Virus record (IMG/VR): IMGVR_UViG_3300043446_000528
Span: 1 to 24,915 of that record
Strand: one strand, 5' to 3'
Source: a virus
Length of the DNA stretch: 24,915 nt
Shown here piece by piece: positions 18,665 to 24,102 of the stretch (position 1 is its first letter; the number at the start of each line of letters is the position of its first letter). Position numbers and translations under genes: made by a program. The notes under the pieces are model-generated. The model searched no databases. It was not told the origin of the DNA and saw nothing but the letters and a program-made list of their open reading frames with translations.

Positions 18665-19114
18665 ATGAGTTATGAAAACCCCTGGATCTACAATGGGGAA
18701 GTATTTGATTCAACTGATATTCAAGATTATTTTGGTTTTGTTTATCATATACACTGCGATAAAACTGGTCGTAGTTATATTGGTCGAAAGTATTTCTGGT
18801 CTTTCCGCACACCAAGAGGAAAATCTAGAAAAGTTAAGTCGGAGTCCGATTGGAAAGCATATTACGGCTCCTGTCCTGAACTCAAAGATGACGTTAAGTT
18901 TTGGGGAAAAAATTCGTTTAGCAGAACAATCCTCAGCCTCCACAAAACCAAAGGACAATGTAACTACGAAGAAACCAAACAACTTTTTCTAAATAATGTG
19001 TTGATTGAGTCTCTTGACGATGGAACGCCAGCGTATTACAATAGTAATATTCTAGGACGCTACATGCGAAAAGATTATGGTAACTTTGGAAGAGACCCTT
19101 CAAACAACACATGA
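18665..19114 (+). CDS. GIY-YIG family endonuclease (putative)
   Basis: A 149-aa protein with a GIY-YIG-like core: GFVYHIHCDKTGRSYIGRK (about residues 24-42) gives the two core strands, with the YIGR arginine as catalytic candidate and the Glu in CNYEETKQLFLNNVL as the likely metal ligand. The sequence then runs into YNSNILGRYM. The first motif reads GFVY, a tolerated variation of GIY. Such nucleases act on DNA as homing endonucleases (T4 Seg type) or as repair or degradation enzymes. No extended DNA-recognition domain is visible, so a free-standing small nuclease is likely. No ribosome site stands out. The 3' end overlaps the next ORF by 38 nt. Confidence 0.8.
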   Translation: MSYENPWIYNGEVFDSTDIQDYFGFVYHIHCDKTGRSYIGRKYFWSFRTPRGKSRKVKSESDWKAYYGSCPELKDDVKFWGKNSFSRTILSLHKTKGQCNYEETKQLFLNNVLIESLDDGTPAYYNSNILGRYMRKDYGNFGRDPSNNT

Positions 19115-19265
19115 TTGGGCAGTTGACCGCATTCATACTCTCTGTGAAGAAAATATTGAGAATGCCCATGCGATTCAATCTGAATTTAGTGAATGGTTGA
19201 ATCCCGAAATTCCAGATCATGATATTTTCTCATTAGAGTTTATAGGAGAGGAAAATGACACTTGA
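19077..19265 (+). CDS. small acidic hypothetical protein
   Basis: A 62-aa acidic protein (MVTLEETLQTTHDWAVDRIH...FIGEENDT) overlapping the GIY-YIG gene by 38 nt and the C39 peptidase gene by 11 nt. The part between these genes remains open and codes for a Glu/Asp/His-rich helix, which supports reality. The start has no clear ribosome site, and a shorter frame from the ATG at 19111 gives only 29 residues and is less likely. Function unknown; perhaps coupled to translation of the downstream lysin. Confidence 0.55.
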   Translation: MVTLEETLQTTHDWAVDRIHTLCEENIENAHAIQSEFSEWLNPEIPDHDIFSLEFIGEENDT

Positions 19266-19926
19266 TCTTCACAACTTTTTCAAGTTTTACGACGAAAAGA
19301 ATTCAAATCACGTAGCAGCAGTTCAATGGTTAGAAGATAACCTACCTGCTCAATTTCTAGATGATGCGGAGACTGACTGGATCGGTATTTTTAGAACAAA
19401 ACCACCAACTCCAGAAGTACTCGCAGTTCCATACTTTAACCAAGTAGATAACTATAGAGATGCACATAGAACTTGCAACAGTTCGTCATGTGCTATGTGT
19501 CTTGCTTTCCTCAAGCCAGGAAGCATCAAAGGTGATGACGAATATGTCAAGAAAGTATTTGAGATTGGTGACACGACTGACCATGCGGTACAGACAAAAG
19601 TTCTGGCGGCTTATGGAGTTAAGTCACACTTTAGTTACAATCTTTCTTTCTCTGATATTGATAAAAGTCTCGACGCTGGGAAGCCCGTTGTTATTGGTAT
19701 CCTGCACCGTGGTCCTTTATCTGCACCTACTGGTGGGCACATGTGTGTTGTAATCGGAAAAACTCCGGATGGTAAAGGTTATTTTGTTAATGATCCTTAC
19801 GGTTCCTGTAATGACAATTACACTGGTCCAGTGACAAATGGTAAGAAAACCATTTATACAAAGGCAATGCTTAAGCACCGCTGGTGTCCAGGAGGCAATG
19901 ATGGCTGGGGAAGAATTTTCGATTAA
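19255..19926 (+). CDS. C39-like cysteine peptidase with shared lysin N-terminal module
   Basis: A 223-aa two-domain protein. Residues 1-45 (LDLHNFFKFYDEKNSNHVAA, then QWLEDNLP) match the N-terminus of the muramidase at 20025, including a 29-nt identical DNA stretch. After a Pro linker (KPPTPEV), residues 57-223 form a papain-like C39_2-type domain: Cys74 in TCNSSSCAM, His162 in GGHMCVVIGK and Asp180 in VNDPYG make a plausible triad. Enzymes of this group cleave peptides; here the target could be peptidoglycan stem peptides, making it a candidate endopeptidase lysin, or a protein processed in the virion. It has no signal peptide. A good ribosome site (AGGAGAGGAAA) precedes the ATG. Confidence 0.82.
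   Translation: MTLDLHNFFKFYDEKNSNHVAAVQWLEDNLPAQFLDDAETDWIGIFRTKPPTPEVLAVPYFNQVDNYRDAHRTCNSSSCAMCLAFLKPGSIKGDDEYVKKVFEIGDTTDHAVQTKVLAAYGVKSHFSYNLSFSDIDKSLDAGKPVVIGILHRGPLSAPTGGHMCVVIGKTPDGKGYFVNDPYGSCNDNYTGPVTNGKKTIYTKAMLKHRWCPGGNDGWGRIFD
19318..19346 (+). repeat. 29-nt exact direct repeat, copy 1
   Basis: Identical at every base to 20091-20119. It codes AVQWLEDNLP in the shared N-terminal module of the two lysin genes. Identity at all codon third positions argues for recent duplication or gene conversion. Confidence 0.95.
19891..19905 (+). repeat. junction repeat, copy 1 (GGAGGCAATGATGGC)
   Basis: Matches 20015-20029 at 14 of 15 bases. Each copy holds a strong ribosome site and an ATG ten bases from its left end, marking the start of the small gene at 19901 and of the muramidase at 20025. 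Confidence 0.85.
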
Positions 19927-20038
19927 TTTTAAAAGAAAGATCTTACAAAGAATTAAAGATCTAACCAATCACGGAAAGCACGTAGAGGCACAACAACTTT
20001 TTACAAAATACTTCGGAGGCAACGATGGCAAGAGTTGA
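19901..20038 (+). CDS. small basic protein nested between the two lysin genes
   Basis: A 45-aa basic helical protein (MAGEEFSINFKRKILQRIKD, ending QLFTKYFGGNDGKS). It overlaps the C39 peptidase gene by 26 nt and the muramidase gene by 14 nt, in a different frame from each. The ATG at 19901 is chosen over 19898 because GGAGG then sits 5 nt away, the same geometry as at the muramidase start. The middle (KILQRIKDLTNHGKHVEAQQLF) is amphipathic. It could be a regulator of the lysins or a translational coupler; no family is recognised. Confidence 0.65.
   Translation: MAGEEFSINFKRKILQRIKDLTNHGKHVEAQQLFTKYFGGNDGKS
20015..20029 (+). repeat. junction repeat, copy 2 (GGAGGCAACGATGGC)
   Basis: Second copy of the ribosome-site plus start-codon repeat described at 19891-19905, at the muramidase start. 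Confidence 0.85.
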
Positions 20039-20699
20039 CTTACATAACTTCTTTCAGTTCTATGATGAAAGAAATCCAAATCACGTTAAAGCAGTTCAAT
20101 GGTTAGAAGATAACCTACCAGTCAAATATCTTGAAGATAATAATGAGTGGGCGGAGATTTATAGAGGAAAAAAGACTAGTGCTGCACCAGCAACCCCAGC
20201 TGCTGCAGCTCCTGCTCCTGTAGTCGGTGGTGATGATGTTCCACAAATGGGCATTAAGTTAATTAAGGAGTTTGAAGGTTGTCACTTAAAGGCATACCCA
20301 GATCCTCTGACTGGTGGACTTCCAATCACAATCGGTTGGGGTTCAACTCGTAAGAAAGATGGTTCAGCATTCAAACTTGGTGATACTTTAACTCAACAAG
20401 AAGCAGATGAACTTCTGATTGAACAATGTAAGAAAGAGTTCCTTCCTGCTTTGCGTAAAATCCCACATTGGAGTGAAATGTCAGATGGAAAAAGAGGAGC
20501 TCTGCTCAGCTTTGCTTATAATCTTGGTGCCGGTTTTTACGGTGGCGATAACTTTAATACTATTACTAAACGCTTGAAGAATAAAGAATGGGATCAAGTT
20601 CCTGATGCTCTTTATATGTACCGCAATCCTGGTTCAAATGTAGAAGCAGGCTTGGCACGTAGAAGAAAGGCAGAAGGTGAATCTTGGAAAAAGGGATGA
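20025..20699 (+). CDS. GH24 muramidase (T4-lysozyme-like endolysin) with shared N-terminal module
   Basis: A 224-aa endolysin expected to cleave MurNAc-GlcNAc bonds of peptidoglycan. Residues 1-45 (VDLHNFFQFYDERNPNHVKA, then QWLEDNLP) are the module shared with the C39 peptidase. An Ala/Pro linker (about 52-68) follows. The GH24 domain (about 72-224) has the catalytic motif Glu84 (EFEGCHLKAYPDP), Asp93 and Thr102 (ITIGWG); the conserved SFAYNLGAG and an Arg-rich end (LARRRKAEGESW) are typical. No signal peptide or signal-anchor is seen, so a holin would be needed for release. The start follows GGAGG by 5 nt. Confidence 0.92.
   Translation: MARVDLHNFFQFYDERNPNHVKAVQWLEDNLPVKYLEDNNEWAEIYRGKKTSAAPATPAAAAPAPVVGGDDVPQMGIKLIKEFEGCHLKAYPDPLTGGLPITIGWGSTRKKDGSAFKLGDTLTQQEADELLIEQCKKEFLPALRKIPHWSEMSDGKRGALLSFAYNLGAGFYGGDNFNTITKRLKNKEWDQVPDALYMYRNPGSNVEAGLARRRKAEGESWKKG
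20091..20119 (+). repeat. 29-nt exact direct repeat, copy 2
   Basis: Second copy of the repeat at 19318-19346, 773 nt downstream and in the same orientation and frame. Recombination between the copies would fuse the peptidase N-terminus to the muramidase and delete the segment between. Confidence 0.95.
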
Positions 20700-20706
20700 C
20701 TAAATA
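20700..20706 (+). promoter_or_regulatory. T4-like late promoter (CTAAATA) with long leader
   Basis: CTAAATA begins one base after the muramidase stop. The next ATG is 101 nt downstream, three to four times the usual spacing in this window, and the leader between them is highly structured. Confidence 0.7.
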
Positions 20707-20747: not shown

Positions 20748-20809
20748 AAGGTGAGTTGTGTTTGGTAGTTCTAGAAGATTTCTACCACACCAACTCACCT
20801 TATTTTTAT
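20748..20809 (+). terminator. terminator-like hairpin ending at the start codon
   Basis: AAGGTGAGTTG (20748-20758) pairs perfectly over 11 bp with CAACTCACCTT (20791-20801); inside, GGTAG (20764-20768) pairs with CTACC (20782-20786). The stem is followed by TATTTTTAT, an imperfect T run whose last bases enter the ATG at 20808. It may terminate the lysin transcript, attenuate the barrel gene, or stabilise its mRNA. Confidence 0.65.
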
Positions 20810-22661
20810 GTCTACCTACTCGCAAAAGGCGCTGGCTGCAGCGTCTGCGCTTCTTCTTGGAGTGCCAACAGCAGCATTAGCACACACCAACTCTATCGGA
20901 TATGTTGGTGGGGGCAACGGATCAGTTACTTTCTGGTATGGTAACTGGCATCCTGGAACTACCTTCAATGAAGGAACTTTAACATTACAAGGTATTAATG
21001 GCACCAGTTTTTCTCCAACTACTGTAAACTGGTCTCAATTATCAGGAACAATGCCAAATGGATTAATTCCTGGTACAAACTATTTTACTTCCAATGGATC
21101 TCAATTAGTTCCTTATGATCCTAGTATTCAAACATCATATACTTGGCAAGGTGTAACCTTCACAGGTCTTTCTGCTGGTGATTATCAGTTTACTTATAAT
21201 GCTGCTGGATCTCCAACAGTAAACTGGATGCCTATGGATAGTATTATTCTCTCTAGTACTGTAAGTCTTTCGGCATCTGCTCTTTCTGGTGATGCTAACC
21301 AAAATGGTATTCTTGACATTTATGAAACAGGTGGAACACCTCCACCTCCAACAGTTACTTCAACTGCTGCTGGAAACTCAATTGTAACTACATCAACAAC
21401 TTATGGAACCAGAACAACTAGTGGAACTCCACATAGACACGTAATGGGTGTAGATGCGAATGGAAATCAAACTGAAACTCATTATACGGATACAGCAGTT
21501 ACAACCATTCCAACAACCACAGTTACAACGACCACAACTCCAGTTACTGTAACAACTTGGAGTGATGGATCTACTACCACAACTAATGGAACTCCAGTTG
21601 TAACTTCGGTTACTACTGATGATAATGCTGGAACAACCGTGATTACTCAAACTAATGTGATTGATTGGGTAAAAACAAGAACTTATGATGTCTCTCCTGT
21701 TTCTTCAGTTCAGCATACAGCATCTGAAAGTGGTGGAAGACAAAAAGTTAATGCTTATACCACAACGACAACTACAACCACTCCAGTTTATACTAAAGTA
21801 TATCCAAACGGAAATCCAACTGAAGTAACATTTGGATCATCAACAGTTGACGTTACTTACGCTTCTAGAGATTATTTTGGACGTATTGACCAATTAGAAG
21901 TTCTTGATGGCATCAATGATAATATCAATGGACTTCTGAATCATGAACCAACCAGAACCAAACAGAAACTGAGAGTATTTGAGAACAACCGTTTTGTTCA
22001 GTCCTATAATGCTGATGGGTATTCTGCAAATTCACAAATCTTTGGTGGTGGATTTGAATTGGATCTAAGTAAAGGTTGGACTGTTGGATATCAATACAAT
22101 AATGTAAACGTTAATCTTCGTGGGGTAGATTCAAGTACATCACAGAAGAAAGATGTTCATGGTATCTTCAATACTTTTCATGGCAATACCTTTACTCTGA
22201 ATACAAACGCTGCTCTAGCAAACAGCAACTACAATTACACCAGAAATGTGGAAGGTGTATTTAATAACGCTGGTGAAACAACGGGAACTGAGTGGTGGGT
22301 ATCTAATAGACTCTATTGGCATCTATCCAAGAATGTAAAACCATTCATTGGATATACAGTTCAGAATGTAAAGAGAAATGCTTATACCGAAACTGGTTCT
22401 CCAGAATCTGCAAGAGTTGTCTCTGCAACTGATAACACCACACACGTTGGTGAAGCAGGTCTTAAATTAGAGGCAAGATTTGGTGGTAAGAAGCACAATC
22501 TTTTTGGTGTAAGTGTTGATGGTGCTTATGCAACTGATAGTTCTTATGGTGTAACTGCTTCTATTGATTATAAGGAATTATTGATTGTTGAAGGTTCTCA
22601 TGGTGTTAATAATGGAGTTACTAACAATTCTGTTGCTGCGAGAGTTAAGTTTAGGTTCTAA
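20808..22661 (+). CDS. exported protein with predicted outer-membrane beta-barrel
   Basis: A 617-aa protein I cannot assign to a named family. Residues 1-25 look like a Sec signal peptide (MSTYSQKALAAASALLLGVP, cleavage after TAALA before His26). Residues 26-160 form a beta-rich domain (GGNGSVTFWYGNWHPGTTFN). Residues 162-173, D-A-N-Q-N-G-I-L-D-I-Y-E, match an EF-hand-type calcium loop, followed by a Pro stretch. Residues 180-345 are Thr-rich low-complexity repeats. Residues about 350-617 show alternating strands and turns (GFELDLSKGWTVGYQYNNVN; RLYWHLSKNVKPFIGYTVQN; GEAGLKLEARFG) ending in ARVKFRF, a C-terminal Phe typical of outer-membrane barrels. No ribosome site is visible. It could alternatively be an adhesin-like virion protein. 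Confidence 0.8.
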   Translation: MSTYSQKALAAASALLLGVPTAALAHTNSIGYVGGGNGSVTFWYGNWHPGTTFNEGTLTLQGINGTSFSPTTVNWSQLSGTMPNGLIPGTNYFTSNGSQLVPYDPSIQTSYTWQGVTFTGLSAGDYQFTYNAAGSPTVNWMPMDSIILSSTVSLSASALSGDANQNGILDIYETGGTPPPPTVTSTAAGNSIVTTSTTYGTRTTSGTPHRHVMGVDANGNQTETHYTDTAVTTIPTTTVTTTTTPVTVTTWSDGSTTTTNGTPVVTSVTTDDNAGTTVITQTNVIDWVKTRTYDVSPVSSVQHTASESGGRQKVNAYTTTTTTTTPVYTKVYPNGNPTEVTFGSSTVDVTYASRDYFGRIDQLEVLDGINDNINGLLNHEPTRTKQKLRVFENNRFVQSYNADGYSANSQIFGGGFELDLSKGWTVGYQYNNVNVNLRGVDSSTSQKKDVHGIFNTFHGNTFTLNTNAALANSNYNYTRNVEGVFNNAGETTGTEWWVSNRLYWHLSKNVKPFIGYTVQNVKRNAYTETGSPESARVVSATDNTTHVGEAGLKLEARFGGKKHNLFGVSVDGAYATDSSYGVTASIDYKELLIVEGSHGVNNGVTNNSVAARVKFRF

Positions 22662-22665
22662 AAAC

Positions 22666-22672
22666 CTAAATA
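22666..22672 (+). promoter_or_regulatory. T4-like late promoter (CTAAATA)
   Basis: CTAAATA lies 25 nt before the ATG at 22698. A small inverted repeat TTAGGTT/AACCTAA (22651-22669) overlaps it. The leader shares CACACGGA with the gene at 10971. Confidence 0.7.
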
Positions 22673-22697: not shown

Positions 22698-23030
22698 ATG
22701 GATAACAAAAGAGAAAAAGCTATGGGACAAGTTATTCGTATTGCGATTTTGAGTTGGTCTGCTGCTCTTCTGACTGCTAGCTATGCTGGTATGCTGTCCA
22801 AAATGGACCCAACTTTCATTGCTACTGTCTTTACTGCTTCCGCTGCTACCTTTGGTATTAATACTATGAAGAAAGGTGGCGAAGAAGAAGAAAAGAAAGA
22901 AGAACCACGTAGAGAAGAAGTTGTAGAAGCACCACCAGAACCTCCTGCTCCTGAAGCATTAACAGCATCTCTTGAAGAAAGAGTTGAAGTGTTGGAAGGT
23001 CAAGTACAACCTCGCACAGGTGGCGCATAA
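22698..23030 (+). CDS. holin-like small membrane protein with acidic tail
   Basis: A 110-aa protein with two likely membrane segments: residues about 11-31 (VIRIAILSWSAALLTASYAG) and 38-57 (PTFIATVFTASAATFGINTM). Residues 60-110 form a highly charged tail, first Glu/Lys-rich (KKGGEEEEKKEEPRREE), then Pro/Glu-rich, then a short helix (SLEERVEVLEGQVQ). Size, two spans and a hydrophilic charged tail match class II holins, and it follows the lysin genes. It may also be an unrelated membrane protein. A second start at the ATG at 22722 (MGQVIRI) is possible. The stop overlaps the next ATG by one base. Confidence 0.75.
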   Translation: MDNKREKAMGQVIRIAILSWSAALLTASYAGMLSKMDPTFIATVFTASAATFGINTMKKGGEEEEKKEEPRREEVVEAPPEPPAPEALTASLEERVEVLEGQVQPRTGGA

Positions 23031-23158: not shown

Positions 23159-23359
23159 ATGCCAAGAGAATGGAATACACCCGTTCGGGAGCCTTGGAAT
23201 CCTGTAATTAAAAAGTGTCTAGATGCTGTCGATGAACATATGCGACAGCATCTCAAGACAGGTGATGAGTGGCACCTTTCTCAAGCAGAAATCTTAAGAA
23301 AATATGTTAAAGACTTAAAAGTTTGGATACATAAACAAGAAGGATGGTGGGATGAATGA
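23159..23359 (+). CDS. small hypothetical protein
   Basis: A 66-aa protein (MPREWNTPVREPWNPVIKKC...WIHKQEGWWDE), rich in Trp and His, predicted mainly helical from residue 14 on. GAGG lies 4 nt before the ATG. The stop forms an ATGA overlap with the metalloprotease gene, so the pair is probably co-translated. It has no export signal, so a direct role as chaperone of the exported protease is uncertain. No family recognised, though the general look is familiar from cyanophages. Confidence 0.75.
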   Translation: MPREWNTPVREPWNPVIKKCLDAVDEHMRQHLKTGDEWHLSQAEILRKYVKDLKVWIHKQEGWWDE

Positions 23360-24102
23360 AAAAACTCCTTACAGCAATAGGATTATCATTAAGTTTAATT
23401 ACTCCAGCATACGCAGACAAATTATTAAGTAAACAACCCACCGTTCCAGCATATAGTCTGGCAGCGATGGGTTGTATGATTTTAAGAGAGTGTACTGAAG
23501 GTGTAGAACAACTTACAGTAGATTCTGCTTCTATCAAAGGAAAAGAGTTTGATGCGTTTAGAGATGAAATTAAATCTATTCTTGCTGGACTTGATAAACT
23601 TGGTGTTCCTGTTTACATTGGACCAGCACGTTACTTTACACCAAGAACTGTAGGATTATATAAACCCGAATATAATCGGTTCTTTGTGAATGAAGAACTC
23701 CTTAAAGATCCTAGGGAGTTTCTAGGAACGATGAGACATGAAGGATGGCATACGGTTCAAGATTGTATGGGTGGTGGACTGAAGACTTCCTTTATGGCAC
23801 AAGTACATCAGGATAGTGAGATCCCTGCTTGGGTCATGAAGATGACAAAACTTTCTTATGAGAGTATGGGTCAAAGTCGTGCCGTGCCTTGGGAAGCAGA
23901 TGCTAACTGGGCAGAAGAACAAGCAAATGTAACAGCACAGAAGTTAGAAATGTGTGCTAAAGGTCCACTCTGGGAACAGATTAGACCGACACCACTTACA
24001 ATGGAATGGTTGATTGGTTGTGGGTGGATGAAACCACAAGAAGGATATAAAGAGTATGTACCTAACAAGAAATCAGATTATTGTGTAGAAGGTAAATACT
24101 GA
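23356..24102 (+). CDS. exported HExxH zinc metalloprotease-like protein
   Basis: A 248-aa protein with a classic signal peptide (MKKLLTAIGLSLSLITPAYA, cleavage after Ala20). The mature part contains MRHEGWHTVQD, with His128-Glu129-x-x-His132 as zinc-binding and catalytic site, and PWEADANWAE with Glu180 as probable third ligand, a gluzincin-like arrangement. Several Cys (40, 46, 137, 200 and two near the C-terminus) suggest disulfides outside the cytoplasm. A periplasmic or envelope peptidase is predicted, acting on host envelope proteins, phage structural proteins or peptidoglycan peptides; the substrate is unknown. It overlaps both neighbours by 1-4 nt. Confidence 0.85.
   Translation: MKKLLTAIGLSLSLITPAYADKLLSKQPTVPAYSLAAMGCMILRECTEGVEQLTVDSASIKGKEFDAFRDEIKSILAGLDKLGVPVYIGPARYFTPRTVGLYKPEYNRFFVNEELLKDPREFLGTMRHEGWHTVQDCMGGGLKTSFMAQVHQDSEIPAWVMKMTKLSYESMGQSRAVPWEADANWAEEQANVTAQKLEMCAKGPLWEQIRPTPLTMEWLIGCGWMKPQEGYKEYVPNKKSDYCVEGKY

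What the first reader, a model, noticed from the sequence alone, without database searches (positions are those of the whole stretch)
20808..22661. A phage gene for an exported outer-membrane-like beta-barrel protein
The 617-aa product has a signal peptide ending ALA before His26, an EF-hand-like calcium loop, a Thr-rich repeat region and a barrel-like C-terminal half ending in Phe (RVKFRF). Phage virion proteins rarely have Sec signals, so this may be placed in the host outer membrane during infection. Possible roles are blocking superinfecting phages, altering permeability, or helping lysis. The export signal and barrel are read from sequence; the role is inference.
Basis: partly seen in the sequence, partly recalled or inferred. 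Interest (0 to 1): 0.75.

Follow-up and report, generated by a model that had tools for sequence, protein, structure and literature searches.

The report
Swappable-head autotransporter in cyanophages
A family of T4-like viruses of cyanobacteria carries an optional gene for a classical autotransporter, a protein that threads itself through the outer membrane; the part it would display on the infected cell comes in at least three interchangeable kinds, which suggests the virus re-decorates its host's surface late in infection.

Summary
Window 20808-22661 encodes a 617-aa protein that meets nearly every testable mark of a monomeric (type Va) autotransporter. It has a Sec-type signal peptide, an Ig-like beta-sandwich head, a Ca-loop-like motif and a Thr-rich beta stalk. 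These are followed by a helix, 12 predicted strands, a C-terminal Phe, no cysteine and a Pfam PF03797 match. The nearest solved structures are the translocators of NalP, EstA, EspP, Hbp and BrkA.

It sits in a T4-like cyanophage (Kyanoviridae) between lysozyme and DUF6450, as a removable cassette with its own late-promoter-like motif and a strong hairpin abutting the start codon. Close relatives lack it at the same spot (8 of 35 scorable, non-independent loci). About 300 IMG/VR stretches encode the barrel, but only 2 of 50,697 deposited phage records do.

One conserved signal peptide and barrel carries three unrelated heads (84, 39 and 8 distinct proteins). Barrels 97% identical can bear different heads. 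The head also occurs on bacterial autotransporters.

Best mechanism: late display of a variable adhesin-like head on the infected cell, most likely to change what can adsorb. The anatomy is well supported; the role is inference.

The parts
20700..20706 (+). CTAAATA late-promoter-like motif 108 nt upstream of the autotransporter start, just after the lysozyme stop
   Evidence: [ACG]TAAATA lies 27-40 nt upstream of 9 other + strand genes of the window; the same motif lies 109-149 nt upstream in relatives with either leader type
20748..20801 (+). Leader hairpin ending 6 nt before the ATG; strongest fold upstream of any gene in the window
   Evidence: z -5.0; z -5.4; paired changes in 15 sequences; relatives with an unrelated leader sequence also fold (z about -5.5 to -6.1)
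20808..22661 (+). Autotransporter gene, 617 aa
20808..20882 (+). Sec-type signal peptide, residues 1-25 (PTAALA|HTN)
   Evidence: sequence; kept across all head types; SignalP not run
20883..21287 (+). Head domain type A, residues 26-160, Ig/FNIII-like beta-sandwich, no Cys, Lys or Arg
   Evidence: AlphaFold mean pLDDT 88.5, pTM 0.84; no significant PDB fold match; bacterial homologues; composition
21291..21326 (+). EF-hand-like calcium loop, residues 162-173, DANQNGILDIYE
   Evidence: sequence; variants DADGDGIND and DANGNGIPDVQE in relatives, absent in a few; dN/dS 0.04
21342..21875 (+). Thr-rich stalk, residues 179-356, long predicted beta strands; length varies among relatives (about 100 to 300 aa)
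21891..21935 (+). Predicted helix, residues 362-376, in front of the first barrel strand (autotransporter linker helix)
21969..22658 (+). Beta-barrel, 12 predicted strands in residues 388-613, ending VKFRF
22666..22672 (+). CTAAATA motif between the autotransporter and DUF6450; absent from 7 of 8 empty sites and kept in L320
19255..19926 (+). C39-like cysteine peptidase (endolysin-type), conserved upstream neighbour
20025..20699 (+). Phage lysozyme, conserved immediate upstream neighbour
22698..23030 (+). DUF6450 membrane protein, conserved downstream neighbour

Best explanation
The gene is a removable late cassette encoding a classical monomeric (type Va) autotransporter. The product leaves the cytoplasm by Sec, the C-terminal 12-strand barrel is inserted in the host outer membrane by the host BAM machinery, and the stalk and head are threaded to the cell surface. 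The barrel is a constant anchor and the head a swappable recognition module. Most likely (about 0.4 taken alone) the displayed head changes what can adsorb to the infected cell or its debris, for example by masking receptors so that late-arriving or newly released phages are not wasted. Supported here: gene, family, predicted fold, modularity, presence or absence at a fixed site, late-promoter-like motif. Inferred: surface localisation, timing of expression, and role.
For: PF03797 at E 1.7e-13, and 9 of 10 barrels of the family match it when scanned without the Thr-rich stalk. AlphaFold predicts a helix plus 12 strands at pLDDT about 90. The best PDB folds are autotransporter translocators: NalP 1uyn/1uyo (E 6.5e-9, target TM 0.74-0.78), EstA, EspP, Hbp, BrkA. 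There is no Cys in 617 aa, and no Lys or Arg in the head. Three unrelated heads sit on one barrel; barrels 97% identical bear different heads; the barrel tree needs 10 head changes where 2 would suffice. Head A is fused to autotransporter barrels in bacterial genomes: L085 E 4.9e-59, L088 3.7e-28, L089 2.8e-31, L086 1.2e-12. Empty sites have 17-37 nt between the lysozyme stop and the DUF6450 start. A late-promoter-like motif precedes the gene in relatives. The head changes about twice as fast as the barrel in dN/dS, 0.24 against 0.125.
Against: No experiment places the protein in the outer membrane or at the surface. The head has no significant fold match, so nothing says what it binds. A late promoter is unusual for superinfection exclusion, which is normally set up early. 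Barrel closure and the helix-in-pore position were not measured on the model. No cyanobacterial host genome could be searched.
Confidence: 0.5

Rival explanations
1. It is a surface-displayed adhesin whose purpose is to make infected cells, or outer-membrane debris released at lysis, stick to other cells or particles, bringing progeny close to new hosts.
For: Head-stalk-anchor architecture with exchangeable heads and variable stalk length; the same head is used on bacterial autotransporters.
Against: No ligand or adhesin family match for the head. Aggregating infected cells has no demonstrated benefit here.
Confidence: 0.22
2. It is part of lysis: it weakens or opens the outer membrane together with the adjacent peptidase, lysozyme and DUF6450.
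For: Conserved position inside an endolysin cluster; late-promoter-like motif.
Against: 8 of 35 scorable loci with near-identical neighbours lack the gene and have lysozyme followed within 17-37 nt by DUF6450. Swappable heads are hard to explain for a lysis part.
Confidence: 0.1
3. It is a host-fitness or nutrient gene: the head captures a metal, carbohydrate or other solute for the infected cell.
For: A conserved calcium-loop-like motif; neighbouring auxiliary genes such as ferredoxin, peroxiredoxin and psbA in relatives.
Against: Three unrelated heads on one anchor imply different partners rather than one nutrient; no enzyme or binding family match.
Confidence: 0.1
4. It is a virion protein (fibre or decoration), and the signal peptide is incidental.
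For: Beta-rich head and stalk could pass for a fibre; late-promoter-like motif.
Against: Clear autotransporter translocator fold; signal peptide kept through head swaps; neighbours are lysis and envelope genes, not structural ones.
Confidence: 0.04

Closest known systems
Type Va autotransporters (Pfam PF03797; NalP, EstA, EspP, Hbp, BrkA translocator domains)
   Same: Signal peptide, N-terminal passenger, linker helix, 12-strand C-terminal barrel, terminal Phe, no cysteine.
   Different: Encoded by a lytic-type cyanophage rather than a cell; beta-sandwich head and Thr-rich stalk instead of the usual long beta-helix; heads swapped between otherwise near-identical proteins.
Bacterial autotransporters with the same HTNS...FWYG head (MAG/SAG loci L085, L086, L088, L089)
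   Same: Alignable head region (43-53% identity to the L086 head among the set) and an autotransporter barrel in one protein.
   Different: Their barrels are only remotely alike to the phage barrel; linkers differ (Big_5 Ig repeats in L088 and L089); they lie in bacterial contigs.
Annotated phage 'autotransporter beta-domain containing' proteins (A0A6J5L9T3, A0A6J5R861; DSL-LC03 WJZ47857.1)
   Same: Same label and similar predicted fold in uncultured Caudovirales; DSL-LC02 and DSL-LC03 proteins are orthologues.
   Different: Automatic annotation only; no paper found discusses them.
Phage proteins that alter the host surface (Cor of phi80/N15; lambda Lom, from memory)
   Same: Phage-encoded envelope proteins; Cor inactivates the FhuA receptor (PMC11436027).
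   Different: Not autotransporters; Cor is small; Lom is a small barrel without a displayed head (from memory).
CwpV of Clostridioides difficile
   Same: Conserved anchor with type-variable repeat domain; confers phage resistance resembling superinfection exclusion (PMC4737114).
   Different: Gram-positive, host-encoded, no barrel, acts after adsorption; an analogy only.

Membership tests
Type Va autotransporter | Sec signal peptide | tested here: met
   n/h/c regions and ALA site by inspection and hydropathy; conserved across head types; SignalP not available
Type Va autotransporter | C-terminal PF03797 beta-domain | tested here: met
   E 1.7e-13, 51.4 bits against cut-off 26; 9 of 10 family barrels
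Type Va autotransporter | 12-strand barrel in a single chain | tested here: met
   12 strands between residues 388 and 613 at pLDDT about 90, Foldseek to NalP, EspP, BrkA; closure not measured on coordinates
Type Va autotransporter | Linker helix before the barrel, inside the pore | tested here: inconclusive
   helix 362-376 predicted; its place in the pore not measured
Type Va autotransporter | C-terminal aromatic residue and terminal-strand signal | tested here: met
   VKFRF end, [VI]KF[RK]F throughout the family
Type Va autotransporter | Passenger reaches the cell surface through BAM | not testable with these tools
   needs fractionation or surface proteolysis
Type Vc trimeric autotransporter (YadA-like) | Four strands per chain, coiled-coil stalk | tested here: not met
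   12 strands in one chain, beta stalk
Superinfection exclusion protein | Blocks adsorption or DNA entry of further phages | not testable with these tools
   no functional data
Superinfection exclusion protein | Made early in infection | tested here: inconclusive
   late-promoter-like motif, no transcript data
Essential lysis protein (spanin or disruptin) | Always present with the lysis genes | tested here: not met
   absent from 8 of 35 scorable relatives

The most novel reading that the evidence does not exclude
A population of lytic cyanophages shares a pool of interchangeable surface-display modules on a common autotransporter anchor, and the head type decides which competing phages or cells can interact with an infected host: a phage-run surface identity system acting after takeover.
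Probability: 0.2. Interest if true: 0.85.

Novelty: new variant of a known kind. Interest (0 to 1): 0.62.

Why it matters
Autotransporters are among the best-studied secreted bacterial proteins, yet I found no report of one functioning in a lytic phage. If displayed, it would show that a phage spends late resources re-surfacing a host it is about to lyse. The swappable heads and the natural with/without pairs at one site give a direct way to ask why. It also adds a named, testable gene to the poorly explained auxiliary genes of cyanophages.

Tried and rejected
A draw of 299 genomes of the phylum of one of them found no further head. Sequence search of the PDB with the protein or its profiles gave nothing significant. 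The head fold search gave only Ig/FNIII-like hits with E 0.05 or worse. Rfam has no family for the leader hairpin. PF03797 is missed in full-length relatives with long Thr-rich stalks; scanning the barrels alone recovers it, so the miss probably comes from the stalk's composition, not a different family. The TAA (YadA-like) label seen for another cyanophage protein (PMC9146016) does not apply, since this protein has 12 strands in one chain.

Full report
Observation. The ORF at 20808-22661 is 617 aa, as stated. The window is part of a T4-like cyanophage: UvsX, DnaB-like helicase, primase, NrdA/NrdB and a SegE-type endonuclease are present. The only annotated relatives are the lake phages Synechococcus phage DSL-LC02 and DSL-LC03, Kyanoviridae, whose paper does not mention an autotransporter or outer-membrane protein (PMC10611076).

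What the protein is. Pfam finds the autotransporter beta-domain at residues 394-575 (E 1.7e-13). AlphaFold on 37 family members predicts a helix at 362-376 and 12 strands between 388 and 613 at about 90 pLDDT, a stalk of long strands at 185-360 also mostly near 90, and a poorly resolved head. A second model of the head alone, with 31 diverse sequences including bacterial ones, is confident (pLDDT 88.5, pTM 0.84) and is a beta-sandwich. It has no significant PDB match, only Ig/FNIII-like hits at E 0.05 or worse. The whole model's best PDB matches are autotransporter translocators: NalP, EstA, EspP, Hbp, BrkA, AaaA. The protein has no cysteine, and the head has no lysine or arginine. In predicted viral structures the two best hits are proteins already labelled autotransporter beta-domain in uncultured Caudovirales.

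Spread. In 50,697 deposited phage records only DSL-LC02 and DSL-LC03 match, even for the barrel at E 10. In IMG/VR, 301 stretches match the barrel and 155-157 the head A queries. These are contigs, not independent phages.

Modularity. Among 133 distinct full-length proteins, the heads fall into three unrelated classes: A (84, the window's), C (39) and B (8), plus two fragments or split genes. The signal peptide and barrel stay recognisably the same. The closest pair with different heads has barrels 97.0% identical. On a barrel tree (quick method), heads need 10 changes where 2 would suffice; well-supported branches alone force at least 3 for A, 3 for C and 4 for B. Stalk length also varies, from about 100 to 300 aa. 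All regions are under purifying selection; the head's dN/dS is about twice the barrel's.

Cellular source of the head. Head A occurs in bacterial MAG or SAG contigs. In L085, L088 and L089 it is joined to a strong PF03797 barrel, and in L086 to a weaker one. L085 lies beside malate dehydrogenase-like and succinyl-CoA ligase-like genes (read from sequence), so it is not a stray phage contig. The phage barrels are only remotely like these bacterial barrels, so head and barrel may have had different histories.

A removable cassette. The gene order C39 peptidase - lysozyme - autotransporter - DUF6450 - ... - SNase - three minus-strand genes - psbA is very stable. In a scan seeded with the C39 peptidase, 35 loci had enough sequence to score: 27 had the autotransporter after lysozyme and 8 did not. 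The 8 have 17-37 nt from the lysozyme stop to the DUF6450 start. Seven of them lack the CTAAATA motif there. The eighth, L320, keeps a CTAAATA and flank closely resembling the window's autotransporter-DUF6450 spacer, as a deletion would leave. These loci are not independent.

Expression. [ACG]TAAATA, like a T4-type late promoter (comparison from memory), lies 27-40 nt upstream of nine + strand genes in the window. For the autotransporter it lies 108 nt upstream, and 109-149 nt upstream in the relatives checked. Between it and the ATG lies the strongest hairpin upstream of any window gene (z -5.4), ending 6 nt before the start codon. Two unrelated leader sequences in the family both form such a hairpin, with some paired changes that keep base pairs. 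It may limit translation or act as an attenuator; this is inference.

Mechanism. From established knowledge of type Va autotransporters, the protein should pass the inner membrane by Sec and the barrel be inserted by BAM, with stalk and head delivered to the surface. A constant anchor with exchanged heads, dispensable at a fixed site, argues for interaction with variable outside partners rather than lysis or structure. I rank adsorption interference first (about 0.4), then adhesion (0.22), with lysis, nutrient capture and virion roles below. Superinfection exclusion by altering surface receptors is a known phage strategy (PMC11436027), and type-variable surface proteins can block phages (CwpV, PMC4737114). 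These are precedents, not tests.

Novelty. Searches of open papers for cyanophage or phage-encoded autotransporters found none describing this. Only open-licence papers were searched. I rate it a new variant of a known kind.

Noticed in passing
window 20748-20801: Long hairpin ending 6 nt before the autotransporter ATG; in relatives an unrelated leader sequence forms a similar hairpin whose 3' arm holds an AGAGGA Shine-Dalgarno-like run, suggesting translational control.
   Followed up: partly
window, upstream of 4896, 6317, 9397, 10971, 11233, 17421, 18665, 22698, 24423: [ACG]TAAATA late-promoter-like motif 27-40 nt before these starts; 18 on the + strand against 6 on the - strand.
   Followed up: partly
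window 19255-19926 and 20025-20699: The C39 peptidase and the lysozyme begin with the same ~45-aa module (LHNFF.FYDE.N.NHV.AVQWLEDNLP); PHROG 3617 (405 positions) matches both, so the two enzymes are probably fused in some phages.
   Followed up: no
window 23356-24102: Exported protein (phrog_591) with HEGWH, an HExxH zinc-peptidase-like motif; may act in the periplasm.
   Followed up: no
window 22698-23030: DUF6450 protein, 110 aa with two hydrophobic stretches and a charged tail, directly after the endolysins in phages without the autotransporter; holin-like by size and place.
   Followed up: no
window 18665-19114: PHROG 447 calls this NAD synthetase, but Pfam identifies a SegE GIY-YIG endonuclease (E 2.5e-52); the PHROG label looks wrong.
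   Followed up: no
L001 4201-4572, 9913-10428 (DSL-LC02): Two more small exported or barrel-like proteins (WJZ48320.1 annotated outer membrane protein; WJZ48310.1) near the autotransporter in relatives.
   Followed up: no
L043 379-2278 (same contig as L178): Autotransporter gene split by a frameshift between head and stalk; an assembly error or on/off variation.
   Followed up: no
L320 2077-2120: Lysozyme-DUF6450 junction without the autotransporter but with its downstream CTAAATA motif and flank, as if left by a deletion.
   Followed up: partly
window 11233 and 17421: Two other genes with strong upstream hairpins (z -4.4 and -4.7).
   Followed up: no
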